Positions 24,891 through 41,542 of a stretch of 64,000 nt of DNA are shown in pieces. How positions within the stretch are numbered: the stretch's first letter is position 1; each line of letters opens with the position of its first letter. Position numbers and translations under genes: made by a program. Location of the stretch: positions 239,565 to 303,564 of IMG/VR virus record IMGVR_UViG_3300037042_006844, one strand, 5' to 3'. The DNA comes from a virus. The notes under the pieces were generated by a model. It was not told where the DNA came from, did no database searches, and saw only the letters and a program-made list of their open reading frames with translations.

Positions 24891-24937
24891 ACCACACACG
24901 ACTCTAAAAAAAGTAGTCGAACTAAAAATACTAAATT

Positions 24938-26140
24938 ATGAATATTAGCCTGGTTATACCTGCAAGAAACAACCTCAAATACCTCAAGTGGTGTTATGAC
25001 GCTATTCGCACCAATCTGAGCCACCGCAACCATGAAATTTGCGTGGCGGATGATGCTAGCACCGATGGCACTTGGGAATGGTGTGAGGCGATGCATAAAC
25101 AAGATCCATATTTCAAAGCCGTCCGCAATGAGGGTCCTGCTCGCAAAGGCATGACTGAGCTTTACAATATTTTGGTAGAGAAGGTCGCCACATGCGAAGT
25201 GGTGATGATTTATCACGCCGACATGTATATCAGTCGCAACGCCGATCTTTTAATAGAAAAGCACCTCAAACCGCAAACAGTTGTGTGTTTGACCAGAGTT
25301 GAACCGCCATTGCACCCAGGAGGTCCAGAAAAAATCGTGATGGATTTTGGCGTGGAACCAGAATCATTCAAAAAAATGGAGTTCGATAAATGGCTGTTGG
25401 AAACAAAAGCAACTCGTAAAGATAAAACCACTGAGGGTGTATTTGCTCCTTGGGCGATCTACAAACAAGACTTCCTTAGCATTGGAGGTCACGACTTATT
25501 GTTTGCTCCCACAAGCAAAGAAGACAGTGATATTTTCAACCGATTCCTTTTGAGTGGATACAAATTCGTTCAGCTATGGGAAGCGTGTGTGTATCATTTG
25601 ACTTGCCGTGGAAGTCGTTTCAATCCAACCATCACATCAATAGGCACCGATAGCACAGAATGGCAAGAGCAGAACGTCAAAAGTGCCAGAAATTTCATTC
25701 GTAAATGGGGTCATTTTGTCAAACACAATGACATGATGAAACCGGTTGTTCCGAACCGTTACAACGTTGGTTTTGTTGTTCTCAATTGCGACGAATATCG
25801 TGTGGCATTACTGGAGCCTTGGTGCGACACGCTATATACAGACGTTCCCTATAGCCGATACATCGCCGCCGAACAAAAGAACACCAAATTCGATCTTGTT
25901 AAAAAGTTGAAAACTTACGAAGAACCAAAAACCAATGACGTTCTGGTTACATTCGACGGCAATAAAGTGACCAACCAAAGCTTTGAATTTTTCAACATGC
26001 TGCAAATGATGTTGGAGGACAGTGGAACGGTTGGTGAACTTGAATACGATATCTTCAAACTTAAAATCAATCGTTTGGTTGATTATAAACAAAGCCTAAT
26101 AAACGTCAATGACGACGACTACAAAAAACGATTGCTATGA
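24938..26140 (+). CDS. Glycosyltransferase family 2 with C-terminal extension
   Basis: 400 aa. Residues 1-~250 form a GT2 domain: NISLVIPARNNLKYLKWCYD, ICVADDASTDGTWEWCEAMH, VVMIYHADMYISRNADLLIE (H-A-D-M as DXD), then GGHDLLFAPTSKEDSDIFNR (E-D base region). The last ~150 residues (from NRYNVGFVVLNCDEYRVALL) are a separate domain I do not recognise. A 47-nt gap precedes the gene, the largest break in this part of the cluster apart from the insertions. Confidence 0.88.
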   Translation: MNISLVIPARNNLKYLKWCYDAIRTNLSHRNHEICVADDASTDGTWEWCEAMHKQDPYFKAVRNEGPARKGMTELYNILVEKVATCEVVMIYHADMYISRNADLLIEKHLKPQTVVCLTRVEPPLHPGGPEKIVMDFGVEPESFKKMEFDKWLLETKATRKDKTTEGVFAPWAIYKQDFLSIGGHDLLFAPTSKEDSDIFNRFLLSGYKFVQLWEACVYHLTCRGSRFNPTITSIGTDSTEWQEQNVKSARNFIRKWGHFVKHNDMMKPVVPNRYNVGFVVLNCDEYRVALLEPWCDTLYTDVPYSRYIAAEQKNTKFDLVKKLKTYEEPKTNDVLVTFDGNKVTNQSFEFFNMLQMMLEDSGTVGELEYDIFKLKINRLVDYKQSLINVNDDDYKKRLL

Positions 26141-26502
26141 ACAACATGTGGTATTTGAATTTTGGGCTTGTATGCTATGTTGCATTTTTCTTGATACTCT
26201 GGTTTAACAGCGACATAGTTGAAACTGTGGCAAAACTGACATGGACCAAGAAACTATTCAGAATCGAAGAGTTCCACACATATAAAATGGAAGTCGATGT
26301 TATGGCTGAATATCCAGATTTTTTGATTGGACAATATCGAGGGTGGATAACGATGCTGTTGTCATGCCCAGTGTGTTTGACATTCTGGTCAACATTGATA
26401 CACACATGCATTTTATGGCCCTGGCAAGCCGCTCTAGTATTGTTTCCCGTCAACTATTGTTTGAGTCTGTCTATTTATTTACTGATACGTAAATTGTTAT
26501 GA
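26137..26502 (+). CDS. Small membrane protein (CPVC motif, DUF1360-like)
   Basis: 121 aa. An N-terminal transmembrane helix (YLNFGLVCYVAFFLILWF), then a cytoplasmic stretch, CPVCLTFWSTLIHTCILW and a final hydrophobic helix ending LLIRKLL. The C-P-x-C-L-x-F-W pattern is reminiscent of DUF1360-type membrane proteins; function unknown. ATGA-type overlaps with both neighbours place it in the sugar operon. Confidence 0.6.
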   Translation: MNNMWYLNFGLVCYVAFFLILWFNSDIVETVAKLTWTKKLFRIEEFHTYKMEVDVMAEYPDFLIGQYRGWITMLLSCPVCLTFWSTLIHTCILWPWQAALVLFPVNYCLSLSIYLLIRKLL

Positions 26503-26780
26503 CCGTTGGAAGCTATCAAGCATTCTATAACATGGTGAAAGATGACCAACCCGCCATTGGAAAGCCTCTTGGCGACTGTCTGCGTTCTTTGTCCGGCATT
26601 TGCGCATGTCGCAAACAGCAAAAAACTCAAAAATCCAACGAGTGTAACCAGCTTTACATTAACTTTGTAAAAACAAGTGGCGAAGCACTCAAAGAATACT
26701 TCGCCACGAAAACTACTGATGCTGAGATTTTATTTAGCCACGACTCGCATCATGAGATACTTAGACTGAAACTTAGGTAA
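26499..26780 (+). CDS. Small hypothetical protein at the end of the sugar cluster
   Basis: 93 aa, not recognised. Cysteine pairs (GICACRKQQ, NECNQ) and a helical C-terminal half (YINFVKTSGEALKEYFATKT); no signal or membrane segment. Overlaps the preceding gene by 4 nt and the convergent dNMP kinase by 8 nt. A CTATTTAT copy lies within the upstream gene about 25 nt before this ATG. Confidence 0.6.
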   Translation: MTVGSYQAFYNMVKDDQPAIGKPLGDCLRSLSGICACRKQQKTQKSNECNQLYINFVKTSGEALKEYFATKTTDAEILFSHDSHHEILRLKLR

Positions 26781-27435
26781 TCACTCCTATTGATTTGAGT
26801 GCTGTTTTTACGTGATCGATGATATACGGAGAGTTTCTCAATGATTCGGCAGTTGGACACTCATCGCTCACATCCACCCATTCAAACGCATAATCTGCTC
26901 TGGCTTTGACTTTTGGATTATTAAACTGTTCATGGTCGTTCGGTGCTGCGTCATATATTTTCACTGGAGTTGCGGTTGTAACGTGACGCTTGCTGGGTGC
27001 TGGACCCAATTTGAAACGAGTTATGTGAATCAATTTCCCCATCATTTTGTTTTGCACCCAGTAACACTCATCCTCTGGATAGCTATCATATCGAATATCT
27101 GTGATGATATCAAAATCAATCTCATTACTAACTGACGCTAGGTAATTAATTCGATCTTCTACTTTTTGGGTCCAATACTTACCATGCGTTAATTTTCGCA
27201 TCATGTCCCCATACGCAACCAATAGTGGACGAATGATATTTTTCTCCTTTGTATTTTCTGTGAATGCGGAGATTAGTGCTTTGTCAAAAATCAAATCTTT
27301 TAGATCACTTTTCAATTCGGTCGCCAATGCGTGTCGAGCAACCCTAAGACCACGTTCTTTGAGAATGTCGGCGGCGACAGTTGCAAACAAATCTTTGCCG
27401 CTTCTTGCAAGACCAGATATACCAATAATTTTCAT
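26773..27435 (-). CDS. Deoxynucleoside monophosphate kinase (T4 gp1-like)
   Basis: 220 aa from the ATG at 27435. A longer frame exists, but its first 20 codons are transposon left-end sequence, nearly identical to the frame in front of uvdE, so they are not part of the protein. The P-loop GISGLARSGKDLFA is at the N-terminus and is typical of dNMP kinases such as T4 gp1, which phosphorylate dNMPs to dNDPs; FDIITDIRYDSYPEDECYW resembles the DVR/lid region. In the ancestral arrangement its ATG followed the gp62 stop by 3 nt; element C now separates them. Confidence 0.82.
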   Translation of the reverse strand: MKIIGISGLARSGKDLFATVAADILKERGLRVARHALATELKSDLKDLIFDKALISAFTENTKEKNIIRPLLVAYGDMMRKLTHGKYWTQKVEDRINYLASVSNEIDFDIITDIRYDSYPEDECYWVQNKMMGKLIHITRFKLGPAPSKRHVTTATPVKIYDAAPNDHEQFNNPKVKARADYAFEWVDVSDECPTAESLRNSPYIIDHVKTALKSIGVIT

Positions 27436-27497
27436 ATTTTTGGAGGAAGGAAACCTCTTCGGCTTTAGCCAAGAGGAGGAATTCCGACCATTCAATT

Positions 27498-27527
27498 ATC
27501 TTAGCACAGTCTTCTTGGATTTGTCAA
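27498..27527 (-). promoter_or_regulatory. Outward promoter inside element C
   Basis: Minus strand: TTGACA (27522-27527), 18-nt spacer, TAAGAT (27498-27503), reading out of the element through the left-end hairpin into dNMP kinase. The GTTGACAAATC start is shared with element D. Confidence 0.6.
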
Positions 27528-27597
27528 CCACAAAAATAGTTTCTCTGTATGAAAGATTTTTTGTATCTTGGACGTTTTTAAGTGTATTTATATGTAG

Positions 27598-28758
27598 ATG
27601 AGCAAATTGACATACAACACAAAATTGATATTCAAGAGCGACGATGATAAAAATAATATCATTAAAATGCTTGAATCCCAACTGTTTGCATGGAATGAGT
27701 GCTCGAAAATCCAATTTACTCTTCCCAAAAACTCTATCATAGACCTGCATTCTAAGTTCTATTCTAGTTTTAGATTAAAAAATCCTAATATACCCTCCCA
27801 AGTCGTAATATCTGCCGAACAGTCAGTTCTGTCCTCGTTTAGATCGATTAAATCAAATAAGCAGAAGGTAAAAACTCCTCCGATTAAAAAGAATTTGTCA
27901 ATCCGACTTGATAAAAGGACATTCTCTTTTAAGAATGGGAAATTTAGCATAATAAGCCTTGGAAAGCGTATCAAATGTCATCCGCTAATCTTCCCCAAAC
28001 TTAAAGAGTATATGGATAAATATACATTTTGCGATCCACTTCTTTTCGTTCGAAACGGAGAAGTCCACATATCTTTAACATTTAATATTCCAGAAATTAA
28101 ATCTCAAAATAAACTTGCGGTTGGGGTCGATTTGGGGTGCGTTAACTTGGCGGCTACCAGTGAAGGAAGGCTGTATAAGGATAAATCATTTAACTCTAGG
28201 AAACGGCAATTGAGGTATCTTAAATCCGCTCTGAAATCGAAAGGCTCAAAGTCTTCCAGAAGGCATATTAATAAATTACATCATAAAGAACATAATATTA
28301 ATAAAAATTTGTCTCATAATTTAGCAAATAGGATCATTCAAGATACAGATGCCGACACGATTGTTCTTGAAAACCTCAAATCATTAAAAGTCAAAAAGCA
28401 TAAATATCAGAATAAAAATAGAATTTCTCAAATTCCAATTTTTGAATTGAGAAGAATAATTACCTATAAGGCACTCTTAAACGAGAAAACGGTTATTGTA
28501 GTAAATCCATCATACACAAGTCAAATTGACCATAGGACAGGCAAACTAGATGGCAAAAGAATTGGTGGTAGGTATATCGGAAAAGATGGTCAAATACTCC
28601 ATGCGGACGTAAATGCCGCTTGTAATATTGCCATTCGATCCAAACTCCCATGTTCAATAAAAAATTATTATACATGGCAGGCGACAGTCAATTCGCCAAT
28701 CGTATGTAAATCTTCTGGTTCGTCGGAAGTATTACAAGCACCTATCCCTTTAGGGTAG
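27598..28758 (+). CDS. tnpB: TnpB RNA-guided nuclease (type 2, no zinc finger)
   Basis: 386 aa. RuvC residues are present: AVGVDLGCVNLAA (first Asp), IVLENLKSLKVKKHKYQ (Glu), LHADVNAACNIA (last Asp). Unlike the type-1 protein, the region after NPSYTSQ reads IDHRTGKLDGKRIGG and has no CxxC pairs, so the zinc ribbon is absent. A bridge/lysine-rich helix (LKSALKSKGSKSSRRHINKL) is present. The C-terminal APIPLG and stop lie within the right-end hairpin. Homologous along its length to the copy at 31127 but well diverged, so the two are separate acquisitions or old duplicates. Confidence 0.9.
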   Translation: MSKLTYNTKLIFKSDDDKNNIIKMLESQLFAWNECSKIQFTLPKNSIIDLHSKFYSSFRLKNPNIPSQVVISAEQSVLSSFRSIKSNKQKVKTPPIKKNLSIRLDKRTFSFKNGKFSIISLGKRIKCHPLIFPKLKEYMDKYTFCDPLLFVRNGEVHISLTFNIPEIKSQNKLAVGVDLGCVNLAATSEGRLYKDKSFNSRKRQLRYLKSALKSKGSKSSRRHINKLHHKEHNINKNLSHNLANRIIQDTDADTIVLENLKSLKVKKHKYQNKNRISQIPIFELRRIITYKALLNEKTVIVVNPSYTSQIDHRTGKLDGKRIGGRYIGKDGQILHADVNAACNIAIRSKLPCSIKNYYTWQATVNSPIVCKSSGSSEVLQAPIPLG

Positions 28759-28772
28759 GTGTTGTTGACGTG

Positions 28773-29255
28773 TTAACTTTCAAATAATTTTTCAATTTCC
28801 GTTTCTGAATATCCGAATGATGAAACCAAAGAAACCAGTTCAGTGGTTCCGCGTTCAGTCTGAATAAGTAGTTTGTAATAATCGGATGCATCACCACTAC
28901 CTATTTGAAAATTTTTGCATATGCAACTCAATACAGTTGCCTCCACATCTTTGTTGCTTTTTTTGATGTATGGATAGAACCTATAGTCTTTCGGAATACA
29001 TTTGATAAGCAATTGATAAAACTGTTTGTCTGGTAAAACTTCCATGTATTTTGAGATGTAAGAGATTTCCTCGATGATTTTCGAATCCATGCTCAATACA
29101 CGCAGAATCATAAACTTGTTGAAAGTTTTACGTTCAGCTTCCGAAAACGTATCGTAATAATCTGGACTTTGAGCTTGTCGTATGTGTTTTACGTGATCAA
29201 ATAACCCTCTGGTTCTAACTACGTCGTCTTTCGACAGTGTTCCTTTTCGTTTCAT
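28773..29255 (-). CDS. 62: Clamp loader small subunit (T4 gp62-like)
   Basis: 160 aa (T4 gp62 is 187). The block KTFNKFMILRVLSMDSKIIE, then FYQLLIKCIPKDYRFYPYIK and VLSCICKNFQIGSGDASDYY, aligns in order and spacing with the conserved core of T4 gp62 (YSKFMVENALS, FNYLMAAVPRGKRYGKW, IIKLLAKRYQVNTNDAINYK) from memory of that protein. It completes the gp44/gp62 loader although encoded 25 kb away from gp44. Overlaps the upstream membrane-protein gene by 41 nt. Ends 3 nt before the right end of element C. Confidence 0.75.
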   Translation of the reverse strand: MKRKGTLSKDDVVRTRGLFDHVKHIRQAQSPDYYDTFSEAERKTFNKFMILRVLSMDSKIIEEISYISKYMEVLPDKQFYQLLIKCIPKDYRFYPYIKKSNKDVEATVLSCICKNFQIGSGDASDYYKLLIQTERGTTELVSLVSSFGYSETEIEKLFES

Positions 29256-29951: not shown

Positions 29952-30974
29952 TTAATTTTCGAGTGGCAACTCGCGCAGTAAATATTCATGACAGTTTTTA
30001 GCCATCTGAACATATGCATCGGAAAATTTGTTGGGCTTAGTTCCCTCTTGGAACAGAACGTGATTTTCAATCACCATTTCAAAAAAGTTTATAGCGTAAT
30101 CTTTGAGTTTGAATTCAAACTCCAAATCAACGTCGAGGTCCACAAATTCAACTGGGAATTTTAATGGCGTGTCGCGATGGCTACGCTTGTCGATACCAAA
30201 CTCACCTCTACTTTCACTATAATGAAACAACGGGCGATACTTGCCCCACGACGACATAGCCAACGCAACTGCATTTTTAGCAGAAAGATGACCTGGGTTG
30301 CATTTATGATGTAAATTGTCGTAAGTGATTGGTATGCCGATACGTTGATGAATATGCTCGTAAAGCTGCTCAACATTCCAACTATTGGGCTTGTCCTCGT
30401 TCTCCAGAACCAAACGACTCTGAACACCCTCAGAAAGCGTTTTATACGCCTCTATAAAGCGTTTGGCGATATCGGGGAGTGATCCCTTGAAACAATTCAT
30501 GTGAATGTTTATAGGGGCATTGTAAGAGCGCGGCAGGCCCATTCTGTCCATAAGCAAAGCGTGATGCTCCAATTCCACTAATGATTTGGCAGCTACAGAA
30601 GGGTTTGCGCTGGCTGGGACCACAAACTGGTCGGGGTGCATACTGCACCTGATACTGTTATTTGCAATAGTTTGCGCAATGTCTGCAAATGTGGCGTTGA
30701 TGAGTGCCTTGTCTGGAAGAACGTCGAAGCTAAGATTAGCATCTGGTAGAGTCGCTAAAGGAAACAGACTGCTGCTGATGCGATAGTTCCAATTATTGGC
30801 AATACAATGTTTAATCGTATCGTGCGTCAGATCCAAATTATTAACAACCCGACTACTTAATATCGATAATGCTTTGGTGCGCTCCAATGCCAAAAACCGT
30901 GTTTTGGTCATTGTGCTGGCTCTACGCCCAGATTTTTGCAGTTCGAGTGATATACAACAGAGACTTTTTTTCAT
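29952..30974 (-). CDS. uvdE: UV-damage endonuclease (UvdE/UVDE family)
   Basis: 340 aa from the ATG at 30974; the 20 codons upstream in frame are transposon left-end sequence and are excluded. TIM-barrel UVDE features are visible: SLCCISLELQ, then IRCSMHPDQFVVPASANP, INIHMNCFKGS, RLVLENEDKPNSWNVEQLYE (metal-binding Glu), GIPITYDNLHHKCNP and LFHYSESRGE. Family members nick DNA 5' of UV photoproducts and other lesions to start repair. Its native promoter (32311-32338) is now on the far side of element D, 1.3 kb away. Confidence 0.92.
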   Translation of the reverse strand: MKKSLCCISLELQKSGRRASTMTKTRFLALERTKALSILSSRVVNNLDLTHDTIKHCIANNWNYRISSSLFPLATLPDANLSFDVLPDKALINATFADIAQTIANNSIRCSMHPDQFVVPASANPSVAAKSLVELEHHALLMDRMGLPRSYNAPINIHMNCFKGSLPDIAKRFIEAYKTLSEGVQSRLVLENEDKPNSWNVEQLYEHIHQRIGIPITYDNLHHKCNPGHLSAKNAVALAMSSWGKYRPLFHYSESRGEFGIDKRSHRDTPLKFPVEFVDLDVDLEFEFKLKDYAINFFEMVIENHVLFQEGTKPNKFSDAYVQMAKNCHEYLLRELPLEN

Positions 30975-31036
30975 ATTTTTGGAGGAAGGAAACCTCTTCG
31001 GCTTTAGCCAAGAGGAGGAATTCCGACCATGCATTT

Positions 31037-31065
31037 AATATAATACATATTCTCCGATTTGTCAA
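31037..31065 (-). promoter_or_regulatory. Outward promoter inside element D
   Basis: Minus strand: TTGACA (31060-31065), 17-nt spacer, TATATT (31037-31042), directed through the left-end hairpin into uvdE, presumably replacing the native promoter displaced by the element. Confidence 0.65.
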
Positions 31066-31126
31066 CATTAAAAATATTTTTCATTATTTTTCAACTTTTT
31101 GTATTTCAAGTGTATACTTATATGAA

Positions 31127-32293
31127 GTGATAAGCTATAATACACAACTTTTAATGAAAACTCAAGATGACTTTGATAATCTCAAGTCAATTCTTGATAT
31201 GCATAAAATTGTGTTTAATTTCGCTTCAAATCTACAATTCAATGAATTAAAAAATAGTTTAGTTGTTTTACATTCAAAAGTCTATTACAATATTCGTAAA
31301 CAATATCCAAACATTCCATCTCAAGTCATAATCAAAGCTGAACAGGAATGCCTGTCAAGTTATAAAACTACTAAATCTAATAAACATAAATTGAAGAAGC
31401 CGATTGAGAAAAAGAATCTCTCAGTGAGATTGGATAAAAGACTTTATTCCAAAAATAAAGATGATAAATACTCTATTCGTATAACGTCTGCGGTTGGAAG
31501 ACAGTCGTATAAATTTGTAGTATATCACAAATTAAAAGAGTTGTTGGATAAGTATGAGTATGCGGACCCATTGATTTATGAAAATGGTGGCAAATTATTT
31601 ATATCATTTTGTTTTGATACTAAACCAAAAGACAAAATCAAGCAAAAATTAGCTTTAGGAGTTGATATCGGAATTCGTCGTAGTGTTGCTTGTAGCGACG
31701 GAAGAATCGTTATTGATAGAAAATTTAATGGTGACAAACGCAAGTTAAGGCATCTGAAAGATGCCCTAAAATCAAAAGGATCAAAGTCTACCAGAAGACA
31801 TCTTAGTAAATTGAGACGCAAAGAGCACAACAAAAACAAAAACCAAACTCATCTTGTTGCCAATGAAGTTTTGAGAACAAAAGCAGACACCATCGTTCTT
31901 GAAAATCTAAAAGGCATAAAGAAAAAGAAACACAAATATCAAAATAAGCGTTCAATTGGACAAGTTCCAATGTTTGAATTTCGCAGAGTAATAACCTATA
32001 AGGCAGAGAACCAAGGTAAGACGGTTCTACTAGTTCGCCCTTATTACACATCACAAACTGATTGCGTAACTGGCAATCGTGAAGGTGAAAGAAGAGGTTG
32101 TAGATTTTACTCTAAGAATGGGCTTATTTATGATGCGGACATCAATGCTGCAATCAATATTGCAAAACTGTCCAAACTTCCCGTATCACAGACTAATTAT
32201 CTGACTTATGGGCAGGCACTCGTCAACGTGCCAATCGTATGTAAATCTTCTGCTAGTAGGGAAGTATTACAAGCCCCTATGGCTTTAGCCTAG
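31127..32293 (+). CDS. tnpB: TnpB RNA-guided nuclease (type 2, no zinc finger)
   Basis: 388 aa from a GTG at 31127, chosen because the next residues (ISYNTQLLMKTQDDF) align with the start of the related protein at 27598 (LTYNTKLIFKSDDD). An ATG at 31154 is the alternative; the upstream ATG at 31122 is out of frame. RuvC residues: LGVDIGIRRSVAC (Asp), IVLENLKGIKKKKHKYQ (Glu), YDADINAAINIA (Asp). As in the 27598 copy, the zinc-ribbon CxxC pairs are missing (YTSQTDCVTGNREGE). The stop lies in the right-end hairpin (32274-32296). Confidence 0.88.
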   Translation: MISYNTQLLMKTQDDFDNLKSILDMHKIVFNFASNLQFNELKNSLVVLHSKVYYNIRKQYPNIPSQVIIKAEQECLSSYKTTKSNKHKLKKPIEKKNLSVRLDKRLYSKNKDDKYSIRITSAVGRQSYKFVVYHKLKELLDKYEYADPLIYENGGKLFISFCFDTKPKDKIKQKLALGVDIGIRRSVACSDGRIVIDRKFNGDKRKLRHLKDALKSKGSKSTRRHLSKLRRKEHNKNKNQTHLVANEVLRTKADTIVLENLKGIKKKKHKYQNKRSIGQVPMFEFRRVITYKAENQGKTVLLVRPYYTSQTDCVTGNREGERRGCRFYSKNGLIYDADINAAINIAKLSKLPVSQTNYLTYGQALVNVPIVCKSSASREVLQAPMALA

Positions 32294-33520: not shown

Positions 33521-33549
33521 ATTATATCACCCAAATGCTTAATTGTCAA
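33521..33549 (-). promoter_or_regulatory. Consensus sigma70 promoter
   Basis: Minus strand: TTGACA (33544-33549), 17-nt spacer, TATAAT (33521-33526): a perfect match to the bacterial consensus. It lies across the 3' end of the VWA gene and drives the gene starting at 33463 after a ~50-nt leader. Confidence 0.85.
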
Positions 33550-35680
33550 TGCTTTCCAACATCTTTTTATTGAGAGTTGAAACGATCTGGTTAATGTTTC
33601 CCACATTGATATAGATGGCATCTTGACCATACATCATTTTGAACAGTTCAGATAGTTTGTTACCGTAACCACCCGAATCGCTAATGAAATAGGAAATGAC
33701 ATTGTAATTATAATCACGAATCTTTTTGGTCTGGTTACGAGTGTGACGGGCAGCAGCTTCGCCGCTATAACTGATATGTTGATCGCTACCGTCTGGCGCG
33801 AATGTGTAGCAAGGCTCGCCATCGCTAATATTGATGAAATAATTATCAGTATTCTCTTCTGCTTTCGGCAGAACCCGCATAATTGCTTCAAAAGCCAGTC
33901 CTTCTGGAGTCAAACCGTTTGGTTGCAAAAATGAAAAAATGCTTTTGATTTTGACAAATTTATCCACGGCACTATCATAGCCAATAACAACATATGGAAG
34001 CTTATCCATAGTGGTTCGGAAACTAATACTGACCCGAATGTTTTCCAACATACTAGCTGCCTTGGCAATTGCCGTGCAGAGTCGCATAGTTCTATTCCAC
34101 TTGTCGCCGCGCATACTAGAACTTGCATCCACACTGATATGGAAATTCATTTTCTTGTATTTATGGGCAGAAATAGAGTAGAAAACGTTTTCCGTTTCAC
34201 AACCCAATTCATGCAACAAACGCTTATCAATCTTGCCAGTCTCTCTACGGCTGAACTTGTCAATATTCACTTCGTTGCGGAACTGAAGACGCTTTCCGAT
34301 TTTGACTCCCATCGAAATTCCTTCATCAATATACCGCTGCAATTCCACAACCGAAGAAACCTTGTGTGGATCATTATTGGAACCATATAGATAATGCACG
34401 GACGACCCCAAAGGAAACTCTACAGTGAGAACCAATTCACGGGTCATATTTTTGACCAAAACGCATTCGATTGCTCCCACACCATTTTGGCTTTTGACAT
34501 ACTCACCACCAACGTCAACCAAATCAATTTTGCTCTGTTCCAACACAGTGAGCACCAACGATTCTTTTCTGGCGATTTTCTTTTTCTTAATATCACCAGA
34601 CACAAAATTTTTCTGCTTTTCGAATGCCTTTTGGATTCTCTTCAATTTGCTTAGGCTGACATCTTTATCCTCACCAATGTCGGTTACTTGTGCATCTTGG
34701 TTAACGTCCGCCACGTTAGTTGCATTACCACCAAATATCGAATCCAAGTTGCCGTTGCCGGGTTTAGAGTCGTCTTTGTCAGATGAATCAGCCTCGCCTT
34801 CTCCAGCTTCTCCAGAACTGCCAGAAATGCCAGAAATGCCAGAAATATCAGAAATGGTTCGCTCGTCCTTGCGCCCAGCAGCAGGGTTCTGCTCCTGTGA
34901 ATCATACTCGGTGACGTTTTTGAACATCTGTGTAGCAATATCCAGAGCAACCTCAAGTCGCTTTTCTGGTGTATCCAGACGAATCATGTTGCTAAGATCG
35001 AGTGTTTTTGCGATATCATACAAACCAGGCAAAGCATTCAAATCAGTATGCTTATTGGTAATGTTGATCAACCGATACATGTAGGATTCGATACTGGGAT
35101 TACGATATAATTTGCTTTTCAAACCGTCATCAATCGCGGATGAGTTGAAATACTTATCGTAAAGGCTCTGATAATACCCACGGTAGCCCGGAGCATTTTT
35201 GTAGATCATGTAGTCGATGTATCGATCTTCAACGAGATTGAGCATCATGCGACAAATATCAGCAACCGACTCCTTGTTGATCCCTAACTTTTCGGTATAA
35301 TCATAAATTTCCCGAGGAATGCGCTGCCAAATTGTTTTGAACAAATCAAAATTACTATAACGAATGTGACTACCTTCGTGTAGAGCCAGACCCACTGCAA
35401 CGTCGAAATTTTCCTTTTCGTTGATGTCAGCACCAATATAAACCGTTTTTCCGTCAGTCATGCTCACATTTTGATCATTAAACATGACGGGAATGGTTTT
35501 GTTGGTGAGAATAGTAACGTAATTCGCCACGGCTCTGCGAGCCGCACTCATGCGAATCAGAGTAGCAGTTCGCCGACTCTGTGAGTTCGACACATCAACA
35601 AAGTTGGAATTTTCACTAAAATCCCAATCGATGTCAAACTCGTCCAACCAAAAATCGCTACTGTGCTTTGTTTTGTCCAT
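33539..35680 (-). CDS. VWA-domain protein with HEXXH motif (CobT-like partner of a MoxR ATPase)
   Basis: 713 aa from the ATG at 35680; an 18-codon in-frame extension overlaps the ATPase gene and is not favoured. An N-terminal domain contains ALHEGSHIRYSNF (HEXXH zincin-like motif, ~100-110). A low-complexity linker rich in Ser, Gly and acidic residues (DISGISGISGSSGEAGEGEA) follows. The C-terminal part is a von Willebrand A domain with MIDAS HISVDASSSMRGDKW and later NISDGEPCYTF. The gene follows the MoxR/CobS-like ATPase by 13 nt, the usual ATPase-VWA pair. Such pairs insert metals or remodel proteins (CobS/CobT for cobalt chelation); which applies here is unknown. Confidence 0.82.
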   Translation of the reverse strand: MDKTKHSSDFWLDEFDIDWDFSENSNFVDVSNSQSRRTATLIRMSAARRAVANYVTILTNKTIPVMFNDQNVSMTDGKTVYIGADINEKENFDVAVGLALHEGSHIRYSNFDLFKTIWQRIPREIYDYTEKLGINKESVADICRMMLNLVEDRYIDYMIYKNAPGYRGYYQSLYDKYFNSSAIDDGLKSKLYRNPSIESYMYRLINITNKHTDLNALPGLYDIAKTLDLSNMIRLDTPEKRLEVALDIATQMFKNVTEYDSQEQNPAAGRKDERTISDISGISGISGSSGEAGEGEADSSDKDDSKPGNGNLDSIFGGNATNVADVNQDAQVTDIGEDKDVSLSKLKRIQKAFEKQKNFVSGDIKKKKIARKESLVLTVLEQSKIDLVDVGGEYVKSQNGVGAIECVLVKNMTRELVLTVEFPLGSSVHYLYGSNNDPHKVSSVVELQRYIDEGISMGVKIGKRLQFRNEVNIDKFSRRETGKIDKRLLHELGCETENVFYSISAHKYKKMNFHISVDASSSMRGDKWNRTMRLCTAIAKAASMLENIRVSISFRTTMDKLPYVVIGYDSAVDKFVKIKSIFSFLQPNGLTPEGLAFEAIMRVLPKAEENTDNYFINISDGEPCYTFAPDGSDQHISYSGEAAARHTRNQTKKIRDYNYNVISYFISDSGGYGNKLSELFKMMYGQDAIYINVGNINQIVSTLNKKMLESIDN

Positions 35681-35693
35681 ATTGTTATTGATA

Positions 35694-36671
35694 TTAAAAC
35701 GGAACTTCGCCGACCTTTTCTTTAACAGGATCATTAAACAGATCGGTCTTTGTGTCGATCCTCACATACTTCTGAACCAACTGCTTCATATAGGTGCGCT
35801 CGCTGTCAACGCCACCATCTTCCGAGAAATTGGGATAAATCGTCATTTCAGCAATCTCAAGAAGGCTGAATCCATCCACAATAAGCTCGGCAATTTCAAC
35901 CGTGCTACGAGTGGGAAGGAAGTTGGTGATTTTACTTTCATCTTGCTTGACCTGCTTGCGGGTGTGATCTGCGATATCACACACAGCCATCAATGTTTCG
36001 AGATGGTTATTGTCAGAAATGCTGAATCGGCTTTTTAGCAGATTATATTCACTGTCCTTGTCAAGGGGAGTCATTTCAATTTTGACAGGAAATCGAGACA
36101 ACAGAGCACGGTCCATGACTCGGGTTGCGGTATATTCATTACCCACGTTGGCAGTGGCAATGAACGTCACTCCTTCAGCAACATTCACAATCTCATTATC
36201 TTCCTTTTCATCCAACCGCAAATAACGTTGCAGATCATCCAAAACCGTCATGAGAATATTCACACCGTCATGGTGAGAACGGGAAATTTCATCGAGCAGA
36301 ATAATAGCATTGGGAGTGCGAATTGCTTTGACAAAGCTGGACTCTTTGAAAAATGTGCCAGAGCTTTTATCAAAATGTGTGTTGCCGATCAGTGCCGATC
36401 TTGCATCTTGGGTCGCGCCCAAATTGAAATAGAAAAACTTGTTGTCCTTACCAATTGCCTTGGCAACAGTTTGGGCAGCAAGAGTCTTTCCGCAGCCGGT
36501 TGGTCCGAGTAACAAAATGTTCTTGCCACGGACGGCACTGCGAACCATATATTTCCATTTCACCTCATCCATGATGAGTGAGGGAGGAAGAAGCTTTTTA
36601 CAATCGGCAAGATACTTCTTCATATCGAAGTTCTCCGATGTCGTGAGGTTGACGTTGTTTTTATGTTTCAT
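35694..36671 (-). CDS. AAA+ ATPase of the MoxR/CobS type
   Basis: 325 aa from the ATG at 36671 (an in-frame TTG six codons earlier is less likely). Walker A LLLGPTGCGKTLAAQ, Walker B AIILLDEISRSHHDG, sensor 1 VTFIATANVGNEYTATR and the arginine segment DRALLSRFPVKIEM are all intact. Myoviruses often carry a 'cobS'-annotated ATPase of this size. With the downstream VWA protein it forms a probable two-component remodelling or metal-chelation machine. Promoter at 36698-36725. Confidence 0.88.
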   Translation of the reverse strand: MKHKNNVNLTTSENFDMKKYLADCKKLLPPSLIMDEVKWKYMVRSAVRGKNILLLGPTGCGKTLAAQTVAKAIGKDNKFFYFNLGATQDARSALIGNTHFDKSSGTFFKESSFVKAIRTPNAIILLDEISRSHHDGVNILMTVLDDLQRYLRLDEKEDNEIVNVAEGVTFIATANVGNEYTATRVMDRALLSRFPVKIEMTPLDKDSEYNLLKSRFSISDNNHLETLMAVCDIADHTRKQVKQDESKITNFLPTRSTVEIAELIVDGFSLLEIAEMTIYPNFSEDGGVDSERTYMKQLVQKYVRIDTKTDLFNDPVKEKVGEVPF

Positions 36672-36697
36672 AGATTGTATGTTCTGCAACTAAGATT

Positions 36698-36725
36698 ATT
36701 CTAACACAGCTTGTTATACTGTCAA
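36698..36725 (-). promoter_or_regulatory. Promoter of the ATPase-VWA operon
   Basis: Minus strand: TTGACA (36720-36725), 16-nt spacer, TAGAAT (36698-36703), 26 nt before the ATG at 36671. Confidence 0.72.
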
Positions 36726-36740
36726 CAGGGGAAAATAAAA

Positions 36741-36768
36741 AAACCGCCAACATTGCTGCTGACGGTTT
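36741..36768 (-). terminator. Rho-independent terminator after the 37141 gene
   Basis: Minus strand: AAACCGTC pairs with GGCGGTTT (one G-U) around a 12-nt loop, followed by TTTTATTTT. Separates the secreted-protein gene from the ATPase operon. Confidence 0.75.
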
Positions 36769-36796
36769 GTTAAGTTATTGAAAGGATATGTTTACT

Positions 36797-37141
36797 TTAT
36801 CGCCTATGATGCCAATGGGATTGGCGGTATTCATATCTCACCACAACTGGGGTCGGCGGGGCATAATAGTAGTAATAATAATAAACCGGAGTTGGTTGAA
36901 CGTAAACCACTGGAGCAGCCACAACCACTGGTTGCTGATAAACTATGGGTTGTTGAACAACCACTGGTTGCTGGTAGATTATGGTTGGTCTTGGCGGGTT
37001 CACAATATGATCAATTGTATGAATTACGGCAACCCCAGTTAAAATCTTACCTGCTGTTGCCCATTCTCTGTCTCCAGCCGAAACAGTTTGACCCAACAAA
37101 AACGATGCCAAAAGAGCACCAACGATTAATAGTTTCTTCAT
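36797..37141 (-). CDS. Small secreted Pro/Val/Tyr-rich protein
   Basis: 114 aa. A clear signal peptide (MKKLLIVGALLASFLLGQTV, cleavage after SAG or VSA). The mature part has repeated Q-Q-P-V-V-V blocks (~57-80), then a run of seven tyrosines and a His/Arg-rich end (QSHWHHRR). Similar compositions occur in small envelope-associated or matrix-like bacterial proteins. Own promoter (37170-37198) and own terminator (36741-36768), i.e. a single-gene early unit. Function unknown; export to the periplasm or surface is inferred. Confidence 0.75.
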   Translation of the reverse strand: MKKLLIVGALLASFLLGQTVSAGDREWATAGKILTGVAVIHTIDHIVNPPRPTIIYQQPVVVQQPIVYQQPVVVAAPVVYVQPTPVYYYYYYYAPPTPVVVRYEYRQSHWHHRR

Positions 37142-37169
37142 ATATTTTTATAGTTACACTTTCACTAGC

Positions 37170-37198
37170 ATTCTAACATACGTTAGAAGCAGAGTCAA
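37170..37198 (-). promoter_or_regulatory. Promoter of the small secreted protein
   Basis: Minus strand: TTGACT (37193-37198), 17-nt spacer, TAGAAT (37170-37175), 28 nt before the ATG. Confidence 0.72.
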
Positions 37199-37225
37199 GT
37201 GGTCGTATTCAAACGATGAATACGT

Positions 37226-37867
37226 TTACTTTTTGCGAGCTTTACCACCTTTGGTGTATTTAATCACCAACTTTTGAAGATTTTTAGGCAGTTTTGGTGG
37301 CTCGTAACTGGGTTTCTTAGACTTATAATCGATTTGTTTTTCAGTCTTGCCCATTGGACGCATAGGTTGAGTTGGATCATCCTTTTCGTCGTTCATTTTT
37401 TCTGCTTTGATGTTCTTGACAATCTTATTGTCTTTTTCTGGGTTTACCACGTTTTGCTCATCAGCAGCTTTATCGGATTTCTTACCACCCTCTTTATCTT
37501 TACTGTTCTCCACGTTACGAGAATATGCAGTATCAACGTAATTCAAATCTTTGTTGGTCAACCACCCCTTGACAAGCTTCTTGGTCTCTTCAAATGGAAC
37601 ATACAGAACCTTTTTACGTTCCACACCGTCTTTGAAATATTGCAAATCGAAGATGTCGTGAACAATAGGGCGGACGCTTATATGATGTGGTTCGCACTCA
37701 CACACATTATAGTTGCCTTTATCATCGAGCTTCACTGGCTTTTTGATATCTTTCTCAAGCTCGATCATCATTTCAGCCCAAGAATCTGAAACGTCAGTCT
37801 TCTTTTCCTCGATGACCTCTCTAACCAATTTGCGAAAGCCTTGAATAATTCGTTGTCTTTTGTTCAT
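37226..37867 (-). CDS. Hypothetical charged protein
   Basis: 213 aa. The N-terminal half (KRQRIIQGFRKLVREVIEEK, then YNVCECEPHHISVRPIVHDI and FEETKKLVKGWLTNKDLNYV) seems folded. The C-terminal half is highly charged and probably disordered (KDKEGGKKSDKAADEQNVVN) and ends KGGKARKK. Not recognised. The charged tail and the CATATTTATATG sequence upstream are compatible with a virion or DNA-associated protein, but this is weak. Confidence 0.6.
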   Translation of the reverse strand: MNKRQRIIQGFRKLVREVIEEKKTDVSDSWAEMMIELEKDIKKPVKLDDKGNYNVCECEPHHISVRPIVHDIFDLQYFKDGVERKKVLYVPFEETKKLVKGWLTNKDLNYVDTAYSRNVENSKDKEGGKKSDKAADEQNVVNPEKDNKIVKNIKAEKMNDEKDDPTQPMRPMGKTEKQIDYKSKKPSYEPPKLPKNLQKLVIKYTKGGKARKK

Positions 37868-37884
37868 ACAATAAGTCTAACATA

Positions 37885-37923
37885 TAAATATGTGCTACTC
37901 TTGAAAAATAGCACATATTTATC
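37885..37923. terminator. Strong bidirectional hairpin between nrdJ and the 37867 gene
   Basis: A perfect 14-bp stem (ATAAATATGTGCTA and its complement) with an 11-nt loop. It lies just after the stop of the last nrdJ fragment on the minus strand and probably terminates that transcript. The stem itself contains ATATTTAT. Confidence 0.7.
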
Positions 37924-37932
37924 GTATTATTG

Positions 37933-38586
37933 TTATCGGATTGGGCAGGCCCCACCTTCACACTCAATACCAACCAAAACCTCGCCAGCATTGATATTCA
38001 AATTCGGCAACGGCTTGACTCGTTCTTTGGCTTTGAGGTAGGTGGCTTCATCAATTTCTTGATAAGGAGCTTGTTTGAATCCATGTTCTTTGTGCAGCAG
38101 AAAACTCACGCTCTTGATACTATTTTTGTAGTTTTCTTTCAACCACTCTTTGATCTCACCCAGTTCTTCGGGCTTGTAATACGCGGTGATGCTCACAGCA
38201 TTATCACTCCAAATGTTCTGCACTTTCTTGACCAAATTCAATTGATCAATAATATTGGCATCTTCCTTCAACAAAGCACCGGCTGGCGTTTCGCATGGAA
38301 AATACACAACCATAGTGTCGTGGTTTTGACTTCCATCAAAATTCAAAAGGAACTCTGTATGATAACCAAGGTCTTTGCATATTTGCACCAGCTTATCACT
38401 GCTGCTCATGCGAATGGTGCGGAAATAGTGCTTGCTATATGCGGGATGAATTCCAGGAGTAGCACCTCCAAGCAAACTCAATGTATTATGACTTACTATA
38501 CCATTTTCCAATTGATAACAATGTGTATCCTCAACTTCACAATCCACTGTGAAATTTTCTTTAACTTCTTTTTTGATCAATTTCAT
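37933..38586 (-). CDS. nrdJ: Class II ribonucleotide reductase, C-terminal fragment with split-intein C-half (IntC-2)
   Basis: 217 aa. Residues 1-34 (MKLIKKEVKENFTVDCEVED ... GIVSHN) are the C-terminal half of an intein, ending in the canonical His-Asn. The extein follows at T35: TLSLLGGATPGIHPAYSK, the continuation of the TVKPSG that ends the previous fragment, so Thr is the +1 nucleophile. The remaining 183 residues complete the reductase barrel and end ECEGGACPIR, a CX4C pair fitting the C-terminal redox cysteines of monomeric B12-dependent reductases. Works only after trans-splicing to the product of 38616-39422. Confidence 0.9.
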   Translation of the reverse strand: MKLIKKEVKENFTVDCEVEDTHCYQLENGIVSHNTLSLLGGATPGIHPAYSKHYFRTIRMSSSDKLVQICKDLGYHTEFLLNFDGSQNHDTMVVYFPCETPAGALLKEDANIIDQLNLVKKVQNIWSDNAVSITAYYKPEELGEIKEWLKENYKNSIKSVSFLLHKEHGFKQAPYQEIDEATYLKAKERVKPLPNLNINAGEVLVGIECEGGACPIR

Positions 38587-38615
38587 ATTTTAATTGTTCT
38601 TTTATTAGTTCTTTT

Positions 38616-39422
38616 TTAGGTTTTTTTGTAGAAACTTTCATCCAATTCATCATCACTAGATAATAGAGATGCTTGTTTCCACTCGCCTGTTTTTAGCAAA
38701 AATTTATGGTTTGGTGTGCATTCAACTATAAACCCGTCATCGAAAGTTAGTTTTATAGTTTGCTCATATCCGTTGATAAACAATTTATTGACGGATTTCC
38801 AGTCTCCGTTCATGTCCAACACTTTAATTGGCGTTTTAACTTCATACCACTCTCTATATTCTTGCGTTTTTTTAGACAAATCAATGCCGTTTAACTTAAA
38901 CACCTCTTCAAATGACAGGGTTCCTTTATTTGTTTTTATTTTAGTTGTTGGAACGACACAACCACTTGGCTTCACCGTGGTCAGTTTGATGCTCTCAGGC
39001 CAGCCCCTTTGCTTGCTCCATTCTTTATCAAACTTACGCAGATTGACATAGCACTTATCCAACCAATCGATTTTATTAAAAGATTGACAAATGCCAGTCA
39101 CGCCCAAGCCCAAACGCATGTTCTTGTGAACGATCTTGGTGGTCTCTTCGTGAATGAACGGTAGTGAAGCAATTGCTTTCTGCGATTTATAAAGAAGTTT
39201 CGCACACTCATTGAGTTCTTCTTCACTTTCAATATTGTTCAAATACAGTTCGCAAAGATTACAGCACTCGTAGTTGCTCAAACTAATTTCCCCACAATTA
39301 TGCACCAATACATTATTGGCAAAAAAATTGTTATTTTTGGTTACACTTATGTCATATACATCCGCATTTTCTATGACTCTAACTCTTTTAATTTTTGATT
39401 TTTTAATATTTCGATTTTCCAT
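38616..39422 (-). CDS. nrdJ: Class II ribonucleotide reductase, middle fragment flanked by two split-intein halves (IntC-1, extein, IntN-2)
   Basis: 268 aa in three parts. (1) Residues 1-42 are intein 1 C-half (DVYDISVTKNNNFFANNVLV, then HN). (2) Residues 43-154 are reductase: CGEISLSNYECCNLCEL, where the first Cys matches the catalytic thiyl-radical cysteine (C408 of the Lactobacillus enzyme) and the Cys 11 residues later its redox partner (C419), ending KLTTVKPSG. (3) Residues 155-268 are intein 2 N-half, from CVVPTTKIKTNKGTLS with block B ECTPNHKFLL. Two trans-splicing reactions are needed. The start lies inside the 3' end of the endonuclease gene. Confidence 0.92.
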   Translation of the reverse strand: MENRNIKKSKIKRVRVIENADVYDISVTKNNNFFANNVLVHNCGEISLSNYECCNLCELYLNNIESEEELNECAKLLYKSQKAIASLPFIHEETTKIVHKNMRLGLGVTGICQSFNKIDWLDKCYVNLRKFDKEWSKQRGWPESIKLTTVKPSGCVVPTTKIKTNKGTLSFEEVFKLNGIDLSKKTQEYREWYEVKTPIKVLDMNGDWKSVNKLFINGYEQTIKLTFDDGFIVECTPNHKFLLKTGEWKQASLLSSDDELDESFYKKT

Positions 39423-40138
39423 AATTTCAAGTCCCGATTGTAGTTTTCACTATAACACGTTATGTCATCTAACACAACAATTTTCACAGTGGGATACTCA
39501 TTTCTCAGCATGTCTATTTTGTATAACCTATTTTTGAAATAACCTTTTATTTCAACAATATAATTCCCAAGCTCCGATTCTATCCAAAAATCGGGTCTAT
39601 ACGATTCTCCGTTACGAAATTTATATTGTTTTCCTTCATACTCCCATTCTATGTTATTTTTATCCAACCATTTCGCATAAATATATTCCCATGTCGATCG
39701 TAGCCAAACAAAACGATTGTCTTTTTTTCTATAATATCCTTGTATCCCTCTGCTATTTTTTACTATATTAGTATTCGTCCAATCATACCAAGGATTTTTT
39801 TCTTTTTTTACACGATCACTTCTAAACTGTTTAGTTGATTCCAATATGATTTTATACCCTTTTCTTGTTGGAATTTTCGCCCAGTTATTTATTAAGCTTC
39901 TACAGACAGTATATGTGATTCCTATTGATGCAGCAATTGTTTTATATCCATATTTATTATATAATTCCGATAAAACCAATTTGCTGTTCTCATCAATAGG
40001 AACTCTATTACATACTTTCGTTTTTTTTCTATTGTTAATATAATTAATGATATTTAACTTTACAATTTCATCAATTATTATTACATTTTTAATATTCCAC
40101 GGTTTAGTCATATCAATATATATGAATCCGTGTGTCAT
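39371..40138 (-). CDS. Free-standing homing endonuclease inside split intein 1 (PD-(D/E)XK type)
   Basis: 255 aa. The nuclease core is at ~175-230: WLRSTWEYIYAKWLDKNNIE, then GESYRPDFWIESELGNYIVE leading into IKGYFKNR. The R-P-D and E-I-K-G pair matches a PD-(D/E)XK/Vsr-like nuclease. The N-terminal half contains a helix-turn-helix-like segment (KLVLSELYNKYGYKTIAASI, then GITYTVCRSLINNW) suited to site recognition. It starts immediately after the stop of the N-terminal reductase fragment and overlaps the next fragment by 52 nt, occupying the place an endonuclease domain has in a contiguous intein. This is the 'fractured gene' layout reported for phage split inteins. Confidence 0.85.
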   Translation of the reverse strand: MTHGFIYIDMTKPWNIKNVIIIDEIVKLNIINYINNRKKTKVCNRVPIDENSKLVLSELYNKYGYKTIAASIGITYTVCRSLINNWAKIPTRKGYKIILESTKQFRSDRVKKEKNPWYDWTNTNIVKNSRGIQGYYRKKDNRFVWLRSTWEYIYAKWLDKNNIEWEYEGKQYKFRNGESYRPDFWIESELGNYIVEIKGYFKNRLYKIDMLRNEYPTVKIVVLDDITCYSENYNRDLKLWKIEILKNQKLKELES

Positions 40139-41542
40139 TTAATCAACTTTAATTAAAACATCCTCTGCCGTCAATTCACATGCTTTAATATAACCACGGG
40201 TTTCTGTATATACCAAATGATCCGGAGTCAATTTTAATATCTCTCCATCTTCCAATTCCAATTCTATAACATTCGAATCCTTTTTAGATAATTGGCCAGA
40301 TAATATCTGTTGATATTCCAGTTTTTCTTCGTCGGTGCAATAACTTAAACAATTTACAATTTCGCCATTTTCAACCAACTCAACTACAGATTTAATTGAA
40401 ATTTCACCTCTATCAGTCATTATTTTTGTATCAGCTGATAGACAGGGATTCGTTCCAACCACATTATCCATGTCGGCTGGATACAACAAACTATCTTTCA
40501 TTGGACCGTCTTTCAACCGTCCGTATTTTTGTGAAAGTGGTAGATTGAAAAATCCATAAGGTTCACCATTGGCACTACCCGTTTCGGGATTGATTTCATA
40601 CCCATTTGTCCAAAACTCATCCATTAAATGACTATAATCGTCTACATACAGCGTGTTATTACTCATACCGCGCCAATTTGGAATATTGGCGGTAGCCCAA
40701 TTTTTGGCTCGCATATACAAAATGTCGTCTGGGTCGCCCAACGCAATCTCTGCGCTGCGACGAACATTACCAGCCACAACGATGCTTCCGATAATATTGC
40801 AAATGTCCAGTGCATCGATGCTACGCAGCTTTTTACCTTCACGGCTTTGGAAAAGAGAAGTAATCTTGGTCATGCCCTCTATCAAAATTCCAGGGCCGCT
40901 TGCCTTGCCGCCAAACCCATTGATTTTCTCACCAGCACCTCTGATCAGAATGGTGGAGTAGGTGAAGCTTTTGCCAGTGACATAAAATGCGCTCAACACG
41001 TTCTCCAGCAACTTGACCCACCCCTCACGGGTATCTGGAACAATGAAGTCGGCATCTTTTGCAGCTAAATGTGTAATAACAACATCTTTTTTGATTTTTG
41101 GAAGTTCCATCACATCTTCACGGCGAATGCTGAACCCCACACCTCCGCCCAACATCAAATTTTCAAATAAAAACAAAAATGCTTTGGGTTCATTGATACT
41201 GGTAAACCAACAATTTAACAAACTATTTGCTCCGAATCTATCAACCGTGCTGGTTCCCAATTGCCAAAGCATACGCCCCGCAAAATTGCACTTCAAATTG
41301 AAAATGTAATCAAACAGTTTCTCCGCTTCGTCCTTGGTATATCCCGCGCCAATTTTCTGAGCACCGTTGATGCACCTTTCAATAGTTTCATGCCACTCTT
41401 CTGTGTTGCCGTCATCTTTCAATCGGGCGTATGTTCGTTTATAGACGATATATCCCAATCCATTGAAACCCCATTTGGGTTGTTTATTTTTATATTTACG
41501 GACGAACTCTTTTGAGAGAACAGTGTTACTATTATTATTCAT
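40139..41542 (-). CDS. nrdJ: Class II (B12-dependent) ribonucleotide reductase, N-terminal fragment with split-intein N-half (IntN-1)
   Basis: 467 aa. Residues 1-366 are reductase: KWGFNGLGYIVYKRTYAR and SLLNCWFTSINEP (Cys matching C119) with LGGGVGFSI, typical of monomeric adenosylcobalamin-dependent enzymes (RTPR type). The extein ends VVGTNP and is followed by Cys367, the first residue of intein 1 (CLSADTKIMTDRGEISIKSV) with block B KLTPDHLVYT; the frame stops 101 residues in. Splicing joins NP to CGEI, creating the active-site N-P-C-G-E motif. The three exteins total about 661 residues. Makes dNTPs from rNTPs without oxygen or a small subunit, using host-supplied B12. Confidence 0.92.
   Translation of the reverse strand: MNNNSNTVLSKEFVRKYKNKQPKWGFNGLGYIVYKRTYARLKDDGNTEEWHETIERCINGAQKIGAGYTKDEAEKLFDYIFNLKCNFAGRMLWQLGTSTVDRFGANSLLNCWFTSINEPKAFLFLFENLMLGGGVGFSIRREDVMELPKIKKDVVITHLAAKDADFIVPDTREGWVKLLENVLSAFYVTGKSFTYSTILIRGAGEKINGFGGKASGPGILIEGMTKITSLFQSREGKKLRSIDALDICNIIGSIVVAGNVRRSAEIALGDPDDILYMRAKNWATANIPNWRGMSNNTLYVDDYSHLMDEFWTNGYEINPETGSANGEPYGFFNLPLSQKYGRLKDGPMKDSLLYPADMDNVVGTNPCLSADTKIMTDRGEISIKSVVELVENGEIVNCLSYCTDEEKLEYQQILSGQLSKKDSNVIELELEDGEILKLTPDHLVYTETRGYIKACELTAEDVLIKVD

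What the first reader, a model, noticed from the sequence alone, without database searches (positions are those of the whole stretch)
37933..41542. B12-dependent ribonucleotide reductase broken into three genes by two split inteins, one carrying a free-standing endonuclease gene
Seen: three minus-strand genes encode, in order, extein-1 + IntN-1, IntC-1 + extein-2 + IntN-2, IntC-2 + extein-3. Intein junctions are explicit: NP/C..., ...VLVHN/C, TVKPSG/C..., ...VSHN/T. A 255-aa PD-(D/E)XK endonuclease gene lies exactly between the halves of intein 1; intein 2 halves are only 29 nt apart with no endonuclease. Established: phage 'fractured genes' with split inteins and separate endonucleases are known (gp41, NrdA, NrdJ, IMPDH types). 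What stands out is two split inteins in one class II reductase, one already without an endonuclease. Inference: both are fast natural trans-splicing inteins usable as an orthogonal pair, since the middle protein carries IntC of one and IntN of the other and must not cyclise.
Basis: partly seen in the sequence, partly recalled or inferred. Interest (0 to 1): 0.92.

Follow-up and report, generated by a model that had tools for sequence, protein, structure and literature searches.

The report
Phage enzyme built from three pieces
A 303,564-base phage record encodes its only detected DNA-building-block enzyme, a vitamin-B12-dependent ribonucleotide reductase, as three separate proteins that two different self-splicing tags should stitch together; this is a doubled and recurrent form of a gene layout already known in phages.

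Summary
Three minus-strand genes (37933-41542) encode extein 1 + IntN-1, IntC-1 + extein 2 + IntN-2, and IntC-2 + extein 3. The joined exteins make a gapless 661-aa class II reductase (TIGR02505, above cut-off) that aligns end to end with Lactobacillus leichmannii RTPR. Relatives 62-89% identical carry the same protein uninterrupted. The thiyl-radical cysteine is the +1 residue of intein 1, and the catalytic cysteines are spread over all three proteins, so both trans-splicing reactions should be obligatory (inferred). Intein 1 is a NrdJ-1 relative (39% identity) with a T7-endonuclease-I-like PD-(D/E)XK gene between its halves. Intein 2 belongs to a family that normally carries a Vsr/I-Bth0305I-like endonuclease; here only a 29-nt gap is left, and other endonuclease-less copies keep recognisable endonuclease tails. 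'Fast' and 'orthogonal' are untested, and the arrangement is not unique: at least five further reductase lineages have two or three split inteins, including cultured Klebsiella phage KP13-7. The kind (Dassa 2009 'fractured genes') is known. The new parts are the multiplicity, the use of the same sites across reductase classes, and the endonuclease-loss series. The same genome holds four more inteins, one of them split in terminase.

The parts
40445..41542 (-). extein 1 (366 aa): reductase N-terminal part, contains the C119-equivalent Cys (SLLNCWF)
   Evidence: PF17975 and PF21995 above cut-off
40142..40444 (-). IntN-1 (101 aa): Cys1 and TPDH block B; NrdJ-1-like
   Evidence: 39% identity to NrdJ-1 (8UBS)
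39371..40138 (-). free-standing homing endonuclease gene (255 aa): helix-turn-helix-like N-part plus T7-endonuclease-I-like PD-(D/E)XK domain (RPDF...VEIKG)
   Evidence: alignment A1, PDB profile hit Endo I 2e-4, fold matches to PD-(D/E)XK nucleases, phrog_945 and phrog_9019
39297..39422 (-). IntC-1 (42 aa, ends VLVHN); starts inside the 3' end of the endonuclease gene
   Evidence: ME(K) starts in homologues
38961..39296 (-). extein 2 (112 aa): begins with the thiyl-radical Cys (C408 equivalent), also holds the C419 equivalent
   Evidence: alignment to 1L1L
38619..38960 (-). IntN-2 (114 aa): Cys1 and TPNH block B
38587..38615 (-). 29-nt gap where relatives carry a Vsr-like endonuclease gene; possible 3' tail of it in the endonuclease frame
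   Evidence: not significant in the window alone
38485..38586 (-). IntC-2 (34 aa, ends IVSHN)
37936..38484 (-). extein 3 (183 aa): begins with +1 Thr, ends with the CEGGAC reducing pair

Best explanation
This is the phage's only detected ribonucleotide reductase, a monomeric-type adenosylcobalamin-dependent class II enzyme (RTPR/NrdJ), made as three precursor proteins. IntN-1 and IntC-1 join extein 1 to extein 2 at NP/C. IntN-2 and IntC-2 join extein 2 to extein 3 at PSG/T. Two protein trans-splicing reactions, each a Cys1 acyl shift, transesterification to the +1 Cys or Thr and Asn cyclisation, give a 661-aa enzyme. Because the radical cysteine and its redox partners lie in different precursors, no precursor can be active. 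The split inteins arose as homing elements: an endonuclease gene inserted in a mini-intein broke the reading frame. Intein 1 still carries its T7-endonuclease-I-like endonuclease and is probably still mobile. Intein 2 has lost its Vsr-like endonuclease, leaving a gene that stays split. Shown: gene layout, junctions, family memberships, uninterrupted and partly interrupted relatives, endonuclease-loss scars in homologues. Inferred: splicing, enzyme activity, homing.
For: Gapless 661-aa join above the RTPR cut-off and seamless alignment to 1L1L, with the C119, C408, C419 and C-terminal CX4C cysteines all present. Both inteins carry the expected splicing residues and match intein models. Uninterrupted relatives at 62-89% identity. 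All three exteins are under strong purifying selection against the uninterrupted relative L002 (pN 0.05-0.13, pS 0.71-0.80), and intein 2 against L090-L092 (pN 0.15-0.19, pS 0.74-0.80). No other reductase in the record. Intein 1 relatives always flank the same endonuclease family at the same cysteine in several reductase types. Intein 2 series: contiguous (L093), split with Vsr-like endonuclease (L090, L092, L095-L098), split without one (window, L091, L100, L115, L187, L195) with scars. Patchy intein 2 carriage on the reductase tree, each carrier nearest to an intein-free row. Inserts are AT-richer (GC 0.25-0.34) than exteins (0.42-0.43).
Against: No splicing, activity or cleavage data. Synonymous sites are saturated, so selection after the fracture cannot be dated. 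The endonuclease scar is not significant in the window itself (1459 of 5000 shuffles as good). No close homologue of the window's intein 1 in the same reductase lineage was found. Whether the endonuclease is active is unknown.
Confidence: 0.9

Rival explanations
1. The reductase is a decaying pseudogene: two parasites have broken it, the fragments do not splice efficiently, and the phage relies on the host reductase.
For: A Campylobacter phage nrdA has been described as a degenerating remnant disrupted by inteins and other genes (PMC3653736). No splicing data here.
Against: All three exteins are gapless with every catalytic cysteine, low pN (0.05-0.13) against an intact relative, both inteins keep all splicing residues, and intein 2 is itself conserved across four phages.
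Confidence: 0.06
2. The precursors assemble without splicing: fragments associate non-covalently into an active enzyme, as in the genes-in-pieces NrdA created by a mobE insertion in an Aeromonas phage.
For: A precedent for an active two-piece NrdA exists (Friedrich 2007, cited in PMC3653736 and PMC3322345).
Against: The radical cysteine would be buried inside an IntC-extein fusion and the intein halves would fill the active site; complete splicing motifs would have no reason to be kept.
Confidence: 0.02
3. The splits are assembly or sequencing errors in otherwise contiguous inteins.
For: Record from the IMG/VR collection of metagenome-derived virus contigs; contiguous intein 2 homologues exist (L093).
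Against: Intein 1 holds a whole 255-aa gene, and the same split recurs in more than 20 contigs. Intein 2 is split in L090-L092 and others, with starts MKLIKK/MRLIKK conserved.
Confidence: 0.02

Closest known systems
Fractured genes with split inteins and free-standing endonucleases (Dassa et al. 2009; paper not held here, known from citing papers and my own knowledge)
   Same: Enzyme gene broken by split intein halves with an endonuclease gene between them; mostly phage; reductase genes (7 nrdA, 2 nrdJ) among the cases; Vsr-related endonuclease family
   Different: Two split inteins in one gene with two unrelated endonuclease families, one endonuclease lost
NrdJ-1 split intein (PDB 8UBS)
   Same: Intein 1: E 3.7e-25, 39% identity, reductase catalytic-cysteine region, typical split position
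   Different: Window junction is NP/C..HN/C (the +1 residue is the radical Cys); other relatives (L112, L139, L141, L142), like NrdJ-1 as I recall it, sit one codon later at NPC/..HN/S
gp41-1 split intein (PDB 6QAZ)
   Same: Closest solved relative of intein 2 (E 2.7e-5)
   Different: Very distant; different host gene and site
I-Bth0305I / Vsr-like homing endonucleases (PDB 3R3P, 1CW0)
   Same: Endonuclease that accompanies intein 2 in L090, L092 and others matches Vsr by profile (1e-4) and Vsr and I-Bth0305I by fold
   Different: Absent from the window
NrdA of Klebsiella phage KP13-7 (OP617745)
   Same: Two split inteins in one reductase, at the catalytic cysteine and at the later ...HN/TSS site, each with an endonuclease gene
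   Different: Class I enzyme, GIY-YIG-like and HNH-like endonucleases (by eye), plus an intron-like break; annotated as hypothetical proteins

Membership tests
Class II (AdoCbl) RTPR-type ribonucleotide reductase | Full-length match to the family model | tested here: met
   TIGR02505 369.5 bits, cut-off 340; 1L1L E 4.9e-91
Class II (AdoCbl) RTPR-type ribonucleotide reductase | Radical Cys, partner Cys pair and C-terminal CX4C present; no small subunit gene | tested here: met
   Alignment; no PF00268 hit in the record
Class II (AdoCbl) RTPR-type ribonucleotide reductase | B12-dependent activity | not testable with these tools
   needs an enzyme assay
Split inteins / fractured genes | N and C intein halves in separate genes, fused to consecutive exteins that join without gap | tested here: met
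   for both inteins
Split inteins / fractured genes | Catalytic residues: Cys1, TxxH, terminal His-Asn, +1 Cys/Ser/Thr | tested here: met
   sequence
Split inteins / fractured genes | Free-standing endonuclease gene between the halves | tested here: met
   Met for intein 1. Not met for intein 2, but relatives have it
Split inteins / fractured genes | Trans-splicing in vitro or in vivo | not testable with these tools
   no experiment
Vsr-like (EDxHD) homing endonuclease family | Intein 1 endonuclease belongs to this family | tested here: not met
   Its profile matches T7 endonuclease I, not Vsr; the Vsr-like family goes with intein 2 relatives
NrdJ-1 split intein family | Sequence relation and insertion at the radical-Cys motif | tested here: met
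   (39% identity); insertion register of NrdJ-1 itself recalled, not tested

The most novel reading that the evidence does not exclude
The catalytic-cysteine and PSG/T codons of reductases are hot spots where different split-intein/endonuclease systems stack up independently in many phages, and once the endonucleases die the phage keeps a permanently multi-part enzyme whose assembly by two mutually orthogonal splicing reactions acts as a built-in control on when dNTP synthesis starts.
Probability: 0.1. Interest if true: 0.8.

Novelty: new variant of a known kind. Interest (0 to 1): 0.55.

Why it matters
It supplies a natural three-part protein whose middle piece carries IntC of one intein and IntN of another, a test of natural orthogonality and a source of split-intein pairs. 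The relatives give a readable series, from contiguous mini-intein to split with endonuclease to split with an endonuclease scar, that makes the proposed origin of split inteins by endonuclease insertion and loss directly testable. Cultured phage KP13-7 makes the multi-split form accessible.

Tried and rejected
Endonuclease tail in the window's intein 2 gap as proof by itself: rejected, K-rich and not better than shuffles (1459/5000), though significant in L091, L115, L187 and L100. Co-conversion tracts next to the insertion sites against L002: no clear pattern, synonymous sites saturated. Trees of intein 1 and of its endonuclease to date the one-codon shift of the insertion site: mostly unresolved. 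Relatives of the intein 1 endonuclease in bacterial and archaeal genome contigs: pattern hits but none confirmed. T4-like late promoters and sigma-70 promoters inside the locus: nothing convincing. Own-genome search for the Vsr-like endonuclease: none. Dassa 2009 is not in the library, so whether it already contains a double-split case could not be checked; library searches found no description of one.

Full report
WHAT IS THERE. The window is bases 239565-303564 of a 303,564-base virus record. On its minus strand three genes code for extein 1 + IntN-1 (41542-40139), IntC-1 + extein 2 + IntN-2 (39422-38616) and IntC-2 + extein 3 (38586-37933), with a 255-aa gene (40138-39371) between the halves of intein 1 and a 29-nt gap between the halves of intein 2.

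EXTEINS. Joined at NP/CGE and PSG/TLS they give 661 aa that score 369.5 bits against TIGR02505 (adenosylcobalamin-dependent ribonucleoside-triphosphate reductase, cut-off 340) and align from end to end with Lactobacillus leichmannii RTPR, 1L1L. From that alignment the radical Cys408 equivalent is the first residue of extein 2, so it is the +1 nucleophile of intein 1. The Cys119 equivalent is in extein 1, Cys419 in extein 2, and the C-terminal CX4C pair in extein 3 (sequence; roles from established knowledge of RTPR). No second large subunit, no small subunit and no class III reductase was found in the record.

UNINTERRUPTED RELATIVES. IMG/VR holds many close relatives with the gene whole, the nearest (L002) at 89% identity. 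The three exteins differ from L002 at 5-13% of non-synonymous but 71-80% of synonymous sites: the protein is under strong constraint, though saturation prevents dating it relative to the fracture.

INTEIN 1. It is related to the split intein NrdJ-1 (E 3.7e-25, 39% identity). A scan for its endonuclease found the same trio (IntN, endonuclease, IntC) at the same radical-cysteine codon in reductases of different types. Most sit at NP/C..HN/C; L112, L139, L141 and L142 sit one codon later, NPC/..HN/S, with the same endonuclease family. The endonuclease has an N-terminal helical part and a PD-(D/E)XK domain (invariant E151, P182-D183, E196-x-K198) whose profile matches T7 endonuclease I (2e-4) and whose predicted fold (mean pLDDT 84) matches PD-(D/E)XK nucleases only weakly (best E 6e-3).

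INTEIN 2. Four phages of this reductase lineage carry it: the window, L090, L091 and L092. On the reductase tree each sits next to an intein-free row (L002, L007, L030, L053), so carriage is patchy, as homing or repeated loss would give. L090 and L092 have a 340-aa endonuclease gene between the halves; that family matches Vsr by profile (1e-4) and Vsr and homing endonuclease I-Bth0305I by fold. A contiguous homologue exists (L093). Copies without the endonuclease are the window, L091, L100, L115, L187 and L195. L115 (GYIVITIWDTDWYSSKD), L195 (IIWEQDW), L091 and L187 still show its C-terminal tail just upstream of, or overlapping, the IntC start, better than all or nearly all of 5000 shuffles in L091 (0 as good), L115 (0) and L187 (2), and 21 in L100. 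In the window the same frame reads KKELIKEQLKYEIDQKRS, but this short K-rich stretch is not significant (1459/5000). A likely reason why the tail survives is that it overlaps the translation start of IntC (inference).

HOW COMMON. Two or three split inteins in one reductase also occur in L082-L084 (both with endonucleases), L115 (three split), L101 (two split plus one contiguous), L154 (two, both with endonuclease genes) and, in a cultured isolate, Klebsiella phage KP13-7, where the pieces are annotated as hypothetical proteins. Campylobacter phage IBB_35 has three inteins in nrdA, the middle one with a separate ORF between its halves. The window is therefore one clean example of a recurrent pattern. 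The sample is biased by the queries, so no frequency is claimed.

WORKING MODEL. Two trans-splicing reactions assemble the enzyme. The inteins are divergent from each other (IntC alignment score 11) and closest to different known split inteins, NrdJ-1 and, very distantly, gp41-1. NrdJ-1 and gp41-1 have been used as an orthogonal pair in engineered multi-part assembly (PMC7090010), which makes orthogonality here plausible but does not show it. Intein 1 has the usual charge pairing (IntN -12, IntC +4); intein 2 has not (-1, -3), so its fragments must associate some other way.

SAME GENOME. Four more inteins were found: an atypically split one in terminase (short IntN, long IntC), two contiguous ones in the next gene (portal-like) and one in an SbcD/SbcC-like gene. 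The phage is unusually rich in inteins.

NOVELTY. The kind, fractured genes with split inteins and free-standing endonucleases, is known (Dassa 2009, cited in PMC3653736 and others; the paper itself is not held). I found no description of two split inteins in one gene in the library, but absence there is weak evidence. I rate it a new variant of a known kind.

Noticed in passing
L125:3333-5392 (-), i.e. record 26832-28891, outside the window: Terminase large subunit of the same phage is broken by an atypically split intein: short IntN (CLWGDSTVKIL...SHLI) and long IntC (MNIPDVKLN...VSHN/CDFS), like the AceL-TerL/GOS-TerL type as I recall it.
   Followed up: partly
L125:3-3311 (-), record 23007-26810: Portal-like protein with two contiguous inteins (CVGPDT...VICGN/T and CLAKNS...VVHN/S), the second with LAGLIDADG-like motifs.
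   Followed up: partly
record 36357-40520 (-): SbcD/SbcC-like (gp47-gp46) fused protein with a contiguous LAGLIDADG-like intein at the GNHD/C metal-site motif.
   Followed up: partly
OP617745.1 30877-36407 (L221:2029-7559): Cultured Klebsiella phage KP13-7: NrdA in pieces with two split inteins, each with its own endonuclease gene, plus an intron-like break with an HNH gene; annotated as hypothetical proteins.
   Followed up: partly
L115:3314-3538 (+): In the gap of a third split intein (at LLLGG/C..HN/TGVG) of a class II reductase lies an ORF ending like TnpB (zinc ribbon, DRDLNAALNIL), as if an RNA-guided nuclease had taken the endonuclease place. Judged by eye only.
   Followed up: no
window 27598-28758 (+) and 30869-32293 (+): Two TnpB-family RNA-guided endonuclease genes in the phage (NF040570 above cut-off); the second ORF overlaps a UvdE-like gene (29952-31034, -).
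   Followed up: partly
window 33539-36689 (-): AAA (MoxR/CobS-like) ATPase gene, phrog_249 'porphyrin biosynthesis', next to a 731-aa gene that looks like a vWA protein by eye, just downstream of the B12-dependent reductase; a cobaltochelatase-like role is possible but untested.
   Followed up: partly
L112, L139, L141, L142, L147: Intein 1 relatives inserted one codon later (NPC/..HN/S or C) although they carry the same endonuclease family as the NP/C ones.
   Followed up: partly
L057 and L060 (about 6295-7275): Third intein site in the same reductase lineage, LLN/CWF at the C119 equivalent, occupied by contiguous inteins.
   Followed up: partly
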